Shown one piece after another: positions 935 to 6,039 of a stretch of DNA of 6,039 nt; the stretch's first letter is position 1; each line of letters opens with the position of its first letter. Both the position numbers and the translations under genes were made by a program. Source of the DNA: Acidobacteriaceae bacterium. GTDB taxonomy: Bacteria > Acidobacteriota > Terriglobia > Terriglobales > Acidobacteriaceae. Under the pieces are notes generated by a model that saw only the letters and a list, made by a program, of their open reading frames with translations, did not search any database and was not told the DNA's origin. The stretch spans positions 2,654 to 8,692 of the forward strand of contig PMTP01000007.1 of the NCBI GenBank assembly GCA_003167305.1, written 5' to 3'.

Positions 935-1396
935 CTACATCCCCTTCGGCGAATGGCGCGTCACCTCCAGCGACTCGCCGGTCTCCAAGAGACTTTTCAG
1001 GCTCGAAAGAATCATCGGCCATCCACTGGAAACCGCCTTAATGAACTTTGAATCCTTCACGTCCATCACATGCGTGAGGATTACCTTGACGGCTTCGCCT
1101 TGTTGTTCGAGTTCGTAGGTCAGGCGCGAGTAGCCCTCGGCGGTCAGCGCGAGAATGATCTGATGCCGCCATGTTTGGACCAGCCGCCGCGGCGGCTCGA
1201 TCTCGACGATTTCGCCCGAGTCGGCTGTGCGCCCGTCGGCAAAGACAATCCGCCACGGAGCGCCCGGCTTCCATTCGGATTCCTGCGTTGTCGCCATCCA
1301 GTATTGACGGGTGAATTCGGGTTCGATCAGCGCCTGCCATAGCTTCTCTGCCGTGGTGCGGATGTAAGTGATGTAAACAAACTGCGATTCAGCCAT
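935..1396 (-). CDS. SRPBCC/AHSA1-domain (START-like) protein
   Basis: This is a 153-residue single-domain protein of the SRPBCC superfamily, AHSA1 (activator of Hsp90 ATPase homologue 1-like) type. Such domains form a helix-grip fold with a deep hydrophobic pocket, and the bacterial ligands are mostly unknown. The N-terminal part (FVYITYIRTTAEKLWQAL at residues ~6-23, then EPEFTRQYW at 26-34) is the typical opening strand and helix. A middle of alternating strands follows (PWRIVFADGR, SGEIVEIEPPRRLVQTW, SRLTYELE, VKVILTH). The C-terminal long helix includes GWPMILSSLKSLLETG. There is no signal peptide, so it is presumably cytoplasmic. The start is well supported by GGAGGG (complement of 1405-1410), 8 nt before the ATG. 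It runs against the dcw genes. Such proteins are often paired with an ArsR-type regulator, but the upstream gene here shows no obvious helix-turn-helix. Confidence 0.87.
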   Translation of the reverse strand: MAESQFVYITYIRTTAEKLWQALIEPEFTRQYWMATTQESEWKPGAPWRIVFADGRTADSGEIVEIEPPRRLVQTWRHQIILALTAEGYSRLTYELEQQGEAVKVILTHVMDVKDSKFIKAVSSGWPMILSSLKSLLETGESLEVTRHSPKGM

Positions 1397-1404
1397 CGTG
1401 TTTT

Positions 1405-1410
1405 CCCTCC
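1405..1410 (-). promoter_or_regulatory. Ribosome binding site of the SRPBCC gene
   Basis: The minus strand reads GGAGGG, then an 8-nt spacer, then ATG at 1396-1394. This is the clearest Shine-Dalgarno on the minus strand. It fixes the start of the SRPBCC protein and lies in the 31-nt gap after the stop of the upstream small gene. Confidence 0.75.
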
Positions 1411-1427
1411 GGGTTATTTTGAATTCG

Positions 1428-1724
1428 CTAAGAGCTCAAGAGATTATCAGGGTCAGGATTGTCTGGTTCCGGAAGGGCAATTGCCCCGGAATTCAAATGT
1501 GGACGAGGCTGAATAGGCGCGCCAATGGGCGCGTCTGGCTCATTGGGCGCCCCGGGATCATTGTGTTCCGAAGCATCGCCGATCAGGAGTCCCTGTAGTT
1601 TCCTAATTGTTTCTACGTCCGCTTCCAGATATGCTTTCGCATAAGCTCGTACGTAATCGCCGACCGGAAACCCACGCAAATCTCGCTCCAGGTCGTCATA
1701 GATGTTCTTTCTTTTCCCATTCAT
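1428..1724 (-). CDS. Hypothetical 98-residue protein with Pro-rich C-terminal tail
   Basis: I do not recognise this family. Residues 1-50 look like a small charged, helical domain (YDDLERDLRGFPVGDYVRAY, then LEADVETIRKLQGLL). Residues 51-98 form a low-complexity acidic tail rich in Pro, Asn and Asp, with a GAP-NEPDAPI-GAP repeat and an ending of PEPDNPDPDN. There is no signal peptide, membrane segment or Cys. It ends 31 nt before the SRPBCC start on the same strand, so the two could be co-transcribed. No Shine-Dalgarno precedes the ATG at 1724, but a TAGAAT box lies 6 nt upstream, which would fit a leaderless message. If the gene is not real, 1397-1782 would be a 386-bp stretch with no other convincing gene. 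The competing plus-strand frame at 1398-1598 looks non-protein-like. Confidence 0.5.
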   Translation of the reverse strand: MNGKRKNIYDDLERDLRGFPVGDYVRAYAKAYLEADVETIRKLQGLLIGDASEHNDPGAPNEPDAPIGAPIQPRPHLNSGAIALPEPDNPDPDNLLSS

Positions 1725-1730
1725 GCAAGC

Positions 1731-1736
1731 ATTCTA
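1731..1736 (-). promoter_or_regulatory. Candidate -10 box, leaderless promoter of the 98-residue gene
   Basis: The minus strand reads TAGAAT (5 of 6 matches to TATAAT), a 6-nt spacer (1730-1725), then ATG at 1724. At normal -10 spacing, transcription would begin at or next to the A of the ATG. No convincing -35 hexamer was found at 16-19 nt. Confidence 0.4.
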
Positions 1737-1769
1737 ACGCTTTTTCCAGTCGATTGAGGCGAAGCAATC

Positions 1770-1775
1770 TACAAT
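1770..1775 (+). promoter_or_regulatory. Candidate -10 box, leaderless promoter of murE
   Basis: TACAAT (5 of 6 matches to TATAAT) ends 7 nt before GTG 1783 and 10 nt before ATG 1786. The expected start of transcription is therefore about 1782-1783. No Shine-Dalgarno is present between the box and the start codon. No good -35 hexamer is seen at 16-19 nt spacing; TTGAGG at 1754-1759 is too close. A separate murE promoter would be needed here, because two opposite-strand genes separate murE from ftsI. Confidence 0.45.
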
Positions 1776-1782
1776 TAAACCC

Positions 1783-3293
1783 GTGATGAACTGGAAAGAA
1801 TTAGCAGCAGAAGTGACGGCGGTGGGCGCGGGCGGCGACTCAGCTGAGCCGGTCACCGGCGTCGAATACGATTCGCGCCGCGTGCGACCCGGCTCGGTCT
1901 TTGTCGCGATAAAGGGCGGATCGACCGACGGCAACCGCTATGTCGAAAAGGCTCGCGCGGTTGGAGCGTTGGGAATCATTACGGATTCCGCGCAGACCTT
2001 TGACCACCTGCTGGTCTTCGCGCCCGGCCTGCCTCTCCTGGAGGTCGAACACGGCCGCCGCGCGCTGGCGCAAGCCTCAGCCGCCTTCTTCTGCCATCCG
2101 GAGCGCTCTCTCGCCGCCACCGGCATCACCGGGACCAATGGCAAAACGACGACCGCCTACCTCATCGAAGCGCTGCTCAACGCCGCCGCGCGAAAGACTG
2201 TGCTGGTCGGCACCATCGAGTACCACGTCGCCGGCGAAGTGCGCCCCTCGGTCCACACCACCCCCGAATCCAGAGACTTGTTTGAGTTGATGGCCGCGGG
2301 CGTGAGTCGCGGCGCAACCGAGCTGGTGACAGAAGTCTCCAGTCACGCGCTCGACCAGGGCCGGGCGATCGGTTTGAATTTTGACGTGGCCGTCTTCACC
2401 AACCTCACCCGCGACCACCTCGACTATCACCAGACGATGGAGAAGTATTTCGCGGCCAAGCGGCTGCTCTTCGACGGCGCGCTCTACCCCGCTCCGCGCG
2501 TCGCGGTTCTCAACGCGCACGACCCGCACACAGCAGCGCTCGCCGCCGCCGGCGCGAAGGCCGGGGCTGAGGTGCGGACTTATGGCATCGGCGCGGGCGA
2601 CTGGCGCGCGGCGCGACACACGTTCACGCCGTCGGGCGCGGTGTTCGAACTCGAAACCCCGGCGGGCGCGGCCAGAATCGTCTCGCATCTCGCCGGCGAG
2701 GTGAACATCCTCAACCTGCTGGCCGCCTTCACTGTCGCCCATGCGCGCGGCGTTCCCTTTGCCGATCTGGTTGAATTCGTTCCCCGTCTCCAGCCTGTGC
2801 CCGGCCGCTTTCAATCCGTCGATGCGGGCCAGCCCTTCACGGTGATTGTGGACTACGCGCACACCGACGACGCGCTGCGCAATCTGACCGCCCTTGCCCG
2901 CCAGATGACGGCGCAGACCGGTGGGCGCGTGATTACGATGTTCGGCTGCGGCGGCGACCGCGACCGCACCAAGCGGCCCCGGATGGGCCAGGCCGCGGGG
3001 CAGGGAAGTGACTTTGTCGTCGCCACCAGCGACAATCCCCGCAGCGAGGAGCCGATGGCGATTCTGGCTGAGATCGAGCCGGGATTGAAGGCCAGTGGCG
3101 TTCATTACACCGTCGAGCCGGACCGCGCCTCCGCCATCCGCCTGGCGCTCCGCGAGGCCAAAGCGGGCGATGTGGTTCTGATCGCCGGCAAAGGCCACGA
3201 GAAGGAGCAGATTCTCGGCTTCACCGCGATTCCCTTCGACGACGTTGCGATTGCCCTTTCCGCGCTCGGCGAAATCGGTTATGGTGGTGAGCA

Positions 3294-3297
<4 letters not shown>
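1783..3297 (+). CDS. murE: UDP-N-acetylmuramoyl-L-alanyl-D-glutamate--2,6-diaminopimelate ligase (MurE)
   Basis: MurE is a cytoplasmic ATP-dependent ligase that adds meso-diaminopimelate to UDP-MurNAc-L-Ala-D-Glu. Numbering from GTG 1783, the N-terminal UDP-binding domain contains VEYDSRRVRPGSVFVAIKG (28-46). The ATP P-loop GTNGKTT is at 117-123 and the HTTPES substrate loop at 158-163. SSHAL is at 186-190, and NLTRDHLDYH (207-216) is followed by KYFAAKRLLF, whose second Lys (226) is the expected carbamylated lysine. The C-terminal domain has DYAHTDDAL (357-365), FGCGGDRDRTKRP (387-399), DNPR (417-420) and GKGHE (469-473). DNPR is the signature of DAP-adding rather than lysine-adding enzymes. 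Its 504 residues are typical of the family. The start is either GTG 1783 or the adjacent ATG 1786, and both give the same protein apart from one residue. Its TGA overlaps the murF ATG by 4 nt. Confidence 0.97.
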
Positions 3298-4702
<1,405 letters not shown>

Positions 4703-4706
<4 letters not shown>

Positions 4707-5578
4707 ATCTTCGCAGATTGATCTGTATCACTTCGTATAGCATAATGCTCGCCTCCGCGGCGAGTCTTGCCGCGCAGAACCCGCCGTCCTGGACCACGCC
4801 CTTTCCACCCCACCACATCGCGGGCAACCTCTACTACGTCGGCAGCGAAGATCTGGCCTCGTATCTCATCGTCACGCCGCAGGGAAACATCCTCATCAAC
4901 AGCAGCTTTGAAGAGAACGTTCCGCTTATCAGAAAAAGTGTCGAGCAGTTGGGCTTCCGCTTCGCCGACATCAAGATACTGCTCATCAGCCACGCGCACA
5001 ACGACCACTGCGCAGGCGCCGCGCTGGTGAAGAAGCTCACCCGGGCGCAGTATATGGTGATGGACGCGGATGTGCCGGTGGTCGAGTCGGGCGGCAAAGA
5101 GGACTTTCAATACGGAGGCAGGCCGGAGATGAGATTTCCACCGGTGAAAGTGGACCGCGTACTGCACGACGGCGATACCGTCAAGCTGGGCGACGCAGTC
5201 CTGACAGCGCATCTGACCGCGGGCCACACCAGAGGAACCACCACGTGGACCTTGGATGAAACCGAAGCCGGCCGCACACTCCACGTGGTCATCGTCGGCA
5301 GCCCGAATGTGAATCCCGGCTACAAACTCGTGAACAACAAAGTCTATCCGCAGATCGCCGCGGACTACCAACATGGCTTTCAGGTGCTGAAGAGCCTGCC
5401 TTGCGACATCTTTCTCGGCGCGCACGGCAGCTACTATGGGCTGAAAGAGAAGTATGAACGCTGGCAGCGAGGAGACCATAATGCCTTCATAGACCCGGAG
5501 GGCTACAAGAGTTACATTGCTGACAGGGAGGGGGCCTTCGAGGCGGAGCTGAAGCGGCAAGAGGCCGGGAAGCAATAG
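4703..5578 (+). CDS. Secreted subclass B3 metallo-beta-lactamase
   Basis: This is a predicted periplasmic zinc hydrolase that opens beta-lactam rings. From GTG 4703 it has 291 residues. Residues 1-24 look like a Sec signal peptide: RR at 4-5, a hydrophobic stretch at 6-22, and likely cleavage in SLAAQ around 23-25. The lactamase fold follows, with GNLYYVGSEDLASYLI (41-56) and LINSSFEENVPLI (64-76). HAHNDH at 97-102 supplies His97, His99, Asp101 and His102; AGHTRGTTTW has His175 and LGAHGSYYGL has His241. Together these give the full B3 ligand set (His-His-His and Asp-His-His) in the right order. GSPNVNPGYKLV (199-210) and the NAFIDPEGYKSYI (260-272) C-terminal region resemble B3 enzymes. A B3-like hydrolase with another substrate is possible, although no metal ligand is missing. 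The gene overlaps murF by 4 nt (GTGA), so it is probably co-transcribed and translationally coupled. Confidence 0.88.
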
Positions 5579-5647
5579 CGTGGCTTCCACAACCCGCGGC
5601 CCCTTCGGCCTAGTAAAATCAAGCTGAATCCGCCCAACACCGGTTCT

Positions 5648-5652
5648 GGAGG
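5648..5652 (+). promoter_or_regulatory. Ribosome binding site deciding the TTG start of mraY
   Basis: GGAGG is followed after 4 nt (CCAC) by TTG 5657. No ATG or GTG in this frame has a comparable site upstream, and the protein from TTG begins exactly like MraY. The spacing is slightly short. Confidence 0.65.
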
Positions 5653-5656
5653 CCAC

Positions 5657-6039
5657 TTGCTTTATTGGCTGCTCTACGAAAAGCTCTTTCCGTTCTTTCA
5701 CCCCTTTCGCGTCTTCCGCTATCTGACCTTCCGCACCGCCTTTGCCACGGGTACGGCGCTGCTGATAGCGCTCTTCATCGGGCCGTGGGTGATTCAGAAG
5801 CTGCGCGAGTTCCAGATCGGCCAGTACATCCGCGACGACGGACCGCAGTCGCACCAGAAGAAGTCCGGCACTCCGACCATGGGGGGCGTGCTCATCGCCA
5901 TCGCCATTTTGCTGCCCACGGTGCTCTGGTCGGTGCCCTCCAATCCCTTTGTCTGGATCGTGGTCTTTTCCACGCTCGCCTTCGGAGCCATCGGCTTTGC
6001 CGACGACTACATCAAAGTGGTCCAAAAGCGCAGCCTGGG
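5657..6039 (+). CDS. mraY: Phospho-N-acetylmuramoyl-pentapeptide-transferase (MraY), N-terminal part; 3' incomplete
   Basis: MraY is an integral membrane enzyme that moves phospho-MurNAc-pentapeptide from UDP to undecaprenyl phosphate, making lipid I. The frame from TTG 5657 encodes 127 residues plus a partial codon and runs off the window. It opens MLYWLLYEKLFPFFHPFRVF, a typical MraY start. A first membrane segment spans about 21-48 (YLTFRTAFATGTALLIALFI). The conserved cytoplasmic loop DDGPQSHQKKSGTPTMGG is at 60-77, a second membrane helix at about 78-93, and a third at about 98-114 ending in GFADDYIKV. Asp116-Asp117 there are the catalytic/Mg-binding aspartate pair of the family. The start is TTG, supported by GGAGG 4 nt upstream. 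The gene follows the lactamase after a 78-bp gap with no convincing terminator, so read-through from the murE-murF-lactamase transcript is likely. Confidence 0.96.
   Translation, partial: MLYWLLYEKLFPFFHPFRVFRYLTFRTAFATGTALLIALFIGPWVIQKLREFQIGQYIRDDGPQSHQKKSGTPTMGGVLIAIAILLPTVLWSVPSNPFVWIVVFSTLAFGAIGFADDYIKVVQKRSL

What the first reader, a model, noticed from the sequence alone, without database searches (positions are those of the whole stretch)
4692..5578. B3 metallo-beta-lactamase embedded in the dcw operon between murF and mraY
A complete secreted B3 metallo-beta-lactamase, with all zinc ligands present (His97, His99, Asp101, His102, His175, His241), sits between murF and mraY. It starts within the murF stop (GTGA overlap) and has a near-perfect Shine-Dalgarno inside murF codons. 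Chromosomal beta-lactamases are normally stand-alone or tied to AmpR/BlaI-type regulators, and murF is normally followed directly by mraY. Here enzyme output would be locked to cell wall precursor synthesis. It may be intrinsic resistance built into the wall operon, or a zinc hydrolase with a wall-related substrate recruited to this job.
Basis: partly seen in the sequence, partly recalled or inferred. Interest (0 to 1): 0.78.

Follow-up and report, generated by a model that had tools for sequence, protein, structure and literature searches.

The report
Beta-lactamase built into wall-gene cluster
In one group of soil Acidobacteria a gene for a predicted antibiotic-destroying zinc enzyme (a B3 metallo-beta-lactamase) sits directly behind the cell-wall gene murF and often overlaps its stop codon, so the enzyme is likely made whenever the cell builds wall, which would make beta-lactam resistance a standing part of growth instead of an induced response.

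Summary
ORF 4703-5578 (291 aa) is a subclass B3 metallo-beta-lactamase by curated model (330 bits, cut-off 240), six zinc ligands and fold (58% identical to FEZ-1). Its GTG start overlaps the murF stop by 4 nt, with AGGAGG inside murF. It is neither a misassembly nor a one-off: of 80 genomes held for this genus (probably Terracidiphilus), 55 carry the gene, and in 52 it lies immediately behind murF. Four genomes of two related genera have it there too; 27 other family copies that I fetched stand elsewhere. An in-frame start sits at the 4-nt overlap in 28 of 41 loci. A conserved promoter-like box precedes murE and another precedes mraY; none of that form lies in the 150 nt before the lactamase (41 of 41 loci). 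Where mraY is gone from downstream (11 of 32 loci) the lactamase stays with murF. Purifying selection is clear (dN/dS 0.08-0.19). The gene is dispensable: 20 of 74 genomes with murF found lack it, and two murF loci keep fragments. Most likely this is an intrinsic beta-lactamase expressed with murE-murF. Co-expression and activity are inferred, not shown. A wall substrate has little support. I found no report of this arrangement in the library searched.

The parts
1770..1775 (+). predicted promoter -10-like box TACAAT upstream of murE (near-leaderless start)
   Evidence: TA[CA]AAT within 30 nt upstream of murE in 46 of 55 loci, 34 at the same offset; about 0.003 expected per window
1783..3297 (+). 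murE (conserved ATG at 1786 is probably the true start)
   Evidence: Pfam Mur ligase domains; start contexts listed
3294..4706 (+). murF, overlapping murE by 4 nt
   Evidence: Pfam; murE-murF offset -4 in 49 of 62 loci
4693..4698 (+). Shine-Dalgarno AGGAGG inside the murF 3' end
   Evidence: sequence; an SD-like motif within 22 nt of the start in 32 of 41 loci
4703..5578 (+). subclass B3 metallo-beta-lactamase gene, GTG start overlapping the murF stop
4703..4774 (+). probable Sec signal peptide (residues 1-24)
   Evidence: read by eye from the sequence; no predictor was run; model helix 3-24
4991..5008 (+). zinc motif HAHNDH (His97, His99, Asp101, His102)
5225..5227 (+). zinc ligand His175 (BBL His196)
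5423..5425 (+). zinc ligand His241 (BBL His263)
5614..5619 (+). predicted promoter -10-like box TAAAAT(C) of mraY
   Evidence: TA[AG]AATC in 25 of 25 loci with lactamase followed by mraY and 7 of 11 empty sites; about 0.003 expected per window
5657..6039 (+). mraY, 5' part (TTG start)
   Evidence: Pfam signature; tblastn

Best explanation
The gene at 4703-5578 encodes a predicted secreted, two-zinc subclass B3 metallo-beta-lactamase that is likely transcribed with murE and murF from a promoter predicted just before murE, and likely translated by ribosomes finishing murF at the 4-nt overlap. It would reach the periplasm and hydrolyse beta-lactams before they reach the penicillin-binding proteins, as a constitutive, growth-linked intrinsic resistance with no dedicated regulator beside it. 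mraY likely starts from its own promoter after the lactamase. The site copies probably descend from one capture between murF and the mraY leader in a common ancestor of this genus and two related genera, passed on mostly by descent and lost many times. Shown: position, overlap, conserved boxes, zinc ligands, predicted fold, selection on the protein, remnants of two lost site copies. Inferred: export, co-transcription, translational coupling, beta-lactam hydrolysis, resistance, single capture, the number of losses.
For: NCBIfam B3 equivalog 330 bits against a 240 cut-off; PDB FEZ-1 E 8e-101, fold match at 58% identity. Ligands in 38 site copies: His116 37 of 38 (one Gln), His118, Asp120, His121, His196 38 of 38, His263 36 of 36 with sequence there. 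52 of 55 MBL-bearing congeners have it behind murF. In-frame start at -4 in 28 of 41, -1 in 2, 2-39 nt after the stop in 11. murE box 46 of 55, mraY box 25 of 25; no TA[ACG]AAT in the 150 nt before the lactamase start in 41 of 41. In 11 of 32 testable loci of the genus mraY is not downstream but murF-lactamase is intact (my count). dN/dS 0.08-0.19 in 10 pairs. T179 in 36 of 38 site copies, Cys in 31 of 31 stand-alone copies. Lactamase fragments behind murF in 2 of 21 loci without the gene there.
Against: No transcript, protein or activity data. Absent from 20 of 74 genomes of the genus with murF found, 9 of them at least 90% complete, so the gene is not essential. 13 of 41 loci lack the -4 overlap and 9 of 41 lack an SD-like motif. 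9 of 55 loci lack the murE box as written. Starts were picked by rule, and for G014 and G043 the true start is doubtful. The box scan used one motif form; another kind of promoter is not excluded, and the chance rate is for the whole fetched DNA, not for intergenic DNA. The quick tree puts the site copies of G198 and G289 among stand-alone copies, although one clade is not rejected (p 0.667). 4-nt overlaps are also the rule for murE-murF (49 of 62), so the overlap may be simple compaction.
Confidence: 0.68

Rival explanations
1. Ordinary soil B3 beta-lactamase that happens to have landed in a permissive gap; it rides on murE-murF transcription but the link to wall synthesis has no selective value.
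For: 20 of 74 congeners with murF found lack it; two genomes hold it away from murF (G042, G030); the same gap holds a toxin-antitoxin-like pair in G010 and other ORFs elsewhere; 4-nt overlaps are common in this cluster.
Against: Linkage to murF is kept in 52 of 55 while mraY is gone from downstream in 11 of 32 testable loci; the overlap start is kept in 28 of 41.
Confidence: 0.22
2. A B3-fold hydrolase recruited to a wall-related substrate (muropeptide or precursor), not a beta-lactamase.
For: Location among wall genes; lineage-specific residues C103 (next to ligand His102; 35 of 38 site copies against 8 of 31) and T179 (36 of 38 against 0 of 31).
Against: Canonical HHH/DHH ligands and a B3 equivalog score above cut-off; absence from 20 of 74 congeners argues against a core wall role; PMC7381538 (section 1, part 1) reports that of twelve B3 genes tested all but the RQK type conferred resistance in E. 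coli.
Confidence: 0.06
3. Assembly artefact or contamination in the window's MAG.
For: The genome is an incomplete MAG (80%, 207 contigs), and its mraY frame is broken near the window end.
Against: The same order in 52 genomes of the genus, including two listed as one contig (G002, G055), and in four genomes of two other genera.
Confidence: 0.01

Closest known systems
[quoted passage not shown]
   Same: Best hit by sequence and fold; 58% identity in the fold alignment.
   Different: 350.6 bits, below the FEZ family cut-off of 600; different phylum. The genomic setting of FEZ-1 was not examined.
Stand-alone B3 enzymes of the same bacterial family
   Same: Up to 70% identical; same ligands, with Gln for His116 in 7 of 35 rows labelled stand-alone.
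   Different: 31 fetched copies (27 of this family, 4 of others) have no mraY match and no murE or murF match at E 1e-40 or better in the fetched stretch; 31 of 31 carry Cys where site copies carry T179.
dcw (division and cell wall) gene cluster, murE-murF-mraY segment
   Same: Same gene order and strand around the insertion.
   Different: An extra, dispensable resistance-type gene sits between murF and mraY.
Regulated chromosomal beta-lactamases (AmpR-ampC, BlaI/BlaR types; recalled, no call)
   Same: Chromosomal, intrinsic.
   Different: No regulator among the window's seven predicted proteins scanned; expression is predicted to follow murE-murF instead.

Membership tests
Subclass B3 metallo-beta-lactamase | Curated B3 model score above cut-off (NF033105, 240 bits) | tested here: met
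   330.1 bits
Subclass B3 metallo-beta-lactamase | Ligand set HHH/DHH | tested here: met
   His97, His99, His175 / Asp101, His102, His241
Subclass B3 metallo-beta-lactamase | Metallo-beta-lactamase fold | tested here: met
   AF2 model pLDDT 77.7; the ten best Foldseek hits are B3 enzymes, FEZ-1 first
Subclass B3 metallo-beta-lactamase | Export to the periplasm | tested here: inconclusive
   N-terminal basic and hydrophobic stretch read by eye; no predictor run
Subclass B3 metallo-beta-lactamase | Beta-lactam hydrolysis | not testable with these tools
   needs purified enzyme
FEZ family (NF000216) | Score at or above 600 bits | tested here: not met
   350.6 bits
HARLDQ MBL-fold proteins outside B3 (NF000405) | Score at or above 350 bits | tested here: not met
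   222.6 bits, and the motif here is HAHNDH
Member of the murE-murF expression unit | Same strand, overlap or short gap, conserved across relatives | tested here: met
   52 of 55 MBL-bearing congeners; 28 of 41 loci with a start at the 4-nt overlap
Member of the murE-murF expression unit | Shared transcript | not testable with these tools
   needs RNA-seq or 5' RACE
Regulator-linked chromosomal beta-lactamase | AmpR- or BlaI-type regulator gene beside it | tested here: not met
   none among seven window proteins scanned with Pfam

The most novel reading that the evidence does not exclude
A hard-wired antibiotic defence: a lineage of soil Acidobacteria has made a carbapenemase-type enzyme the third product of its wall-precursor operon, translated by the ribosomes that have just made MurF, so that the number of lactamase molecules tracks the rate of wall synthesis without any sensor or regulator.
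Probability: 0.42. Interest if true: 0.75.

Novelty: new variant of a known kind. Interest (0 to 1): 0.58.

Why it matters
Chromosomal beta-lactamases are usually thought of as stand-alone or induced by wall damage (recalled). Here the gene would be tied to the making of the wall itself, which offers a natural case of constitutive, growth-matched resistance from soil. The genus gives matched genomes with the gene, with empty sites and with split clusters, so the value of coupling a resistance enzyme to its target pathway can be tested. It also shows how a resistance gene can settle in a conserved core cluster and still be lost.

Tried and rejected
Misassembly: rejected, because the same order occurs in independent genomes.

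Recent plasmid acquisition: no plasmid match at 60% identity or more; 17 records in all, best listed 42%.

A promoter directly before the lactamase: the only sigma-70-like site found in 1650-5760 lies inside the lactamase 5' end (4718-4746) and is at chance level (1 found, 0.6 expected). One search had scanned only the 60 nt before the murF stop; one search rescanned 60 and 150 nt before the start chosen in each of 41 loci, and the 14 longer gaps: nothing.

Independent captures: the quick tree alone suggested a second origin for G198 and G289. The AU test does not reject one clade, and the T179 marker favours one origin; left open.

First count of start overlaps (29 of 41) read past an earlier murF stop in G004; corrected to 28 of 41. 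First murF-tree labels (16 changes) counted G043, G044 and G058 as lacking the gene; corrected to 15 changes with 59 rows, G022 left out.

A third short match in an empty site (G011) I read as the mraY leader, not a lactamase fragment.

Literature: the ten searches gave no paper on a lactamase behind murF, judged from listings. Of the papers, PMC7381538 was seen in passages and section 1 part 1, PMC5184135 as abstract, outline and passages, PMC5147048 and PMC8066302 in passages only; the rest only as search listings.

PADLOC gave nothing for two proteins.

Full report
What is there. The ORF at 4703-5578 (+) encodes 291 residues from a GTG start. The start shares GTGA with the murF stop (TGA 4704-4706) and is preceded by AGGAGG at 4693-4698. 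Pfam finds the transpeptidase and PASTA domains of an FtsI-type protein (1-792), MurE, MurF, the lactamase fold and the MraY signature in order on the + strand; an AHSA1-type gene and a 98-aa ORF without a match lie on the - strand between ftsI and murE.

Identity of the protein. The NCBIfam B3 equivalog model scores 330.1 bits (cut-off 240); FEZ (350.6, cut-off 600) and the HARLDQ non-B3 model (222.6, cut-off 350) are below their cut-offs. PDB sequence search ranks FEZ-1 first (E 8e-101). An AF2 model (mean pLDDT 77.7, pTM 0.77; the other four models score 37.9-59.8) matches FEZ-1 with TM 0.81 normalised by the query and 0.89 by the target, at 58% identity; the ten best hits are B3 enzymes, and HARLDQ-type relatives and other MBL-fold proteins follow. 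Ligands are the canonical HHH/DHH; among 38 site copies only G047 departs (Gln at position 116), and two copies have a gap at His263.

Distribution. The window lies on contig C184 (11,712 bases) of an 80% complete MAG. One search covered 80 genomes of the genus: 55 have the lactamase at E 1e-20 or better, 31 of the 42 that are at least 90% complete and at most 5% contaminated. One search found murF in 74 of 80. Coordinates put the two side by side on one strand in 52 of 55. The three others: G307 (contig edge, no murF found), G042 (a copy on another contig than murF) and G030 (an apparently insertion-sequence-related ORF upstream of the copy, read by eye). In an even draw of 200 genomes of the family, 70 have a lactamase relative. 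By coordinates (read by eye) 9 lie beside murF: five of the genus, three of g72 (G226, G198, G289) and one of g31 (G218); one search confirms the last four. murF places of some of the other 61 were not printed or not found. I fetched 31 stand-alone copies (27 of the family, 4 from other families); none shows mraY, or murE or murF at E 1e-40 or better, in the stretch, though some contigs end close by. g72 and g31 also have empty murF-mraY sites (L140, L142, L151, L152, L153).

Anatomy across relatives. In 64 murF loci: 41 with lactamase next, 11 with mraY next (empty site), 2 with mraY 1.1-1.3 kb away, 8 with other sequence, 2 contig ends. An in-frame start is at -4 in 28 of 41, -1 in 2, and 2-39 nt after the stop in 11; an SD-like motif is present in 32 of 41. 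Upstream of murE, TA[CA]AAT lies within 30 nt in 46 of 55 loci, 34 at one offset. Upstream of mraY, TA[AG]AATC lies within 60 nt in 25 of 25 loci with lactamase and mraY, in 7 of 11 empty sites and 2 of 2 distant ones. Expected at the rate of all fetched DNA: about 0.003 per window for each. No TA[ACG]AAT lies in the 150 nt before the lactamase start in 41 of 41 loci. In six loci (L077, L080, L102, L106, L107, L112) the lactamase stop codon is the first three bases of the mraY box. The predicted unit is therefore murE-murF-lactamase, then a new start for mraY. Overlaps of 4 nt also join murE and murF in 49 of 62 loci.

Natural experiments. Of 37 loci of the genus with the lactamase behind murF, 21 have mraY downstream (two of them after 0.7 and 1.6 kb), 11 do not in the stretch held, and 5 end too soon (my count). 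The lactamase stays with murF when mraY is gone. In several split loci a block on the other strand follows; representatives are DUF167, an alanine-racemase-N (YggS-like) protein and a pyridine nucleotide-disulphide oxidoreductase.

Selection and history. dN/dS in 10 close pairs (G000 and G013 used twice) is 0.078-0.188 for the lactamase, 0.034-0.144 for murF and 0.055-0.174 for murE. On the murF tree the presence label changes 15 times among 59 rows (quick tree with many weak branches), so losses, regains or both are frequent. Loss is shown directly in two places: behind murF, G010 keeps a 48-nt match to a lactamase 3' end and G030 a 58-nt match of which about 44 nt are a lactamase 5' end (21 loci searched). 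G010's gap also holds an Xre-type antitoxin and a RES-domain protein. The quick lactamase tree puts 39 rows together with support 89: the genus's 34 site copies in the tree, three copies of the genus not seen beside murF, G226 and G218. G198 and G289 fall outside, but holding all site copies together is not rejected and scores higher (p 0.667). T179 is in 36 of 38 site copies, G198 and G289 included, and in 0 of 31 stand-alone ones, which have Cys; C103, next to ligand His102, is in 35 of 38 against 8 of 31.

Reading. The protein is under selection as an intact B3 enzyme, is kept with murF, and is dispensable. That fits an intrinsic beta-lactamase better than a wall enzyme. PMC7381538 (section 1 part 1) reports that of twelve B3 genes tested all but the RQK type conferred resistance in E. 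coli; it notes B3 genes in an uncultured acidobacterium, but the part read does not mention this location. Coupling to wall synthesis is the natural consequence of the anatomy but is unproved.

Novelty. The enzyme type is known; its fixed seat in the wall cluster with a murF overlap was not found in print in the searches made, which cover open-licence papers only.

Noticed in passing
window about 6021-6039 and beyond (L075 8674-8693): The mraY reading frame of this MAG is broken near the window end compared with its relative G004 (two tblastn pieces in different frames); an assembly error or a real lesion.
   Followed up: partly
L085 7554-8452 (G010): The murF-mraY gap of a very close relative holds an Xre/ParS-type antitoxin and a RES-domain protein plus a 48-nt lactamase 3' fragment; a similar pair seems to sit in L101 (G027), by eye.
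   Followed up: partly
L081, L088, L111, L113, L119, L124 and others: In part of the genus the dcw cluster is split behind murF or the lactamase, with a DUF167/YggS-like/oxidoreductase block on the opposite strand and no mraY in the stretch held.
   Followed up: partly
window 1770-1786: The conserved TACAAT box ends about 10 nt before the conserved murE ATG, which suggests a near-leaderless murE transcript.
   Followed up: partly
L038, L119, L124 (G029, G046, G051): Site copies in this subclade begin MNRR.FL, which looks like a Tat signal, unlike the Sec-like starts of others (by eye).
   Followed up: no
window 935-1724, - strand: An AHSA1-type gene and an unknown 98-aa ORF sit between ftsI and murE on the opposite strand; matches appear in only some relatives.
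   Followed up: no
L120 (G047): One site copy has Gln at ligand position 116 (B3-Q type).
   Followed up: no
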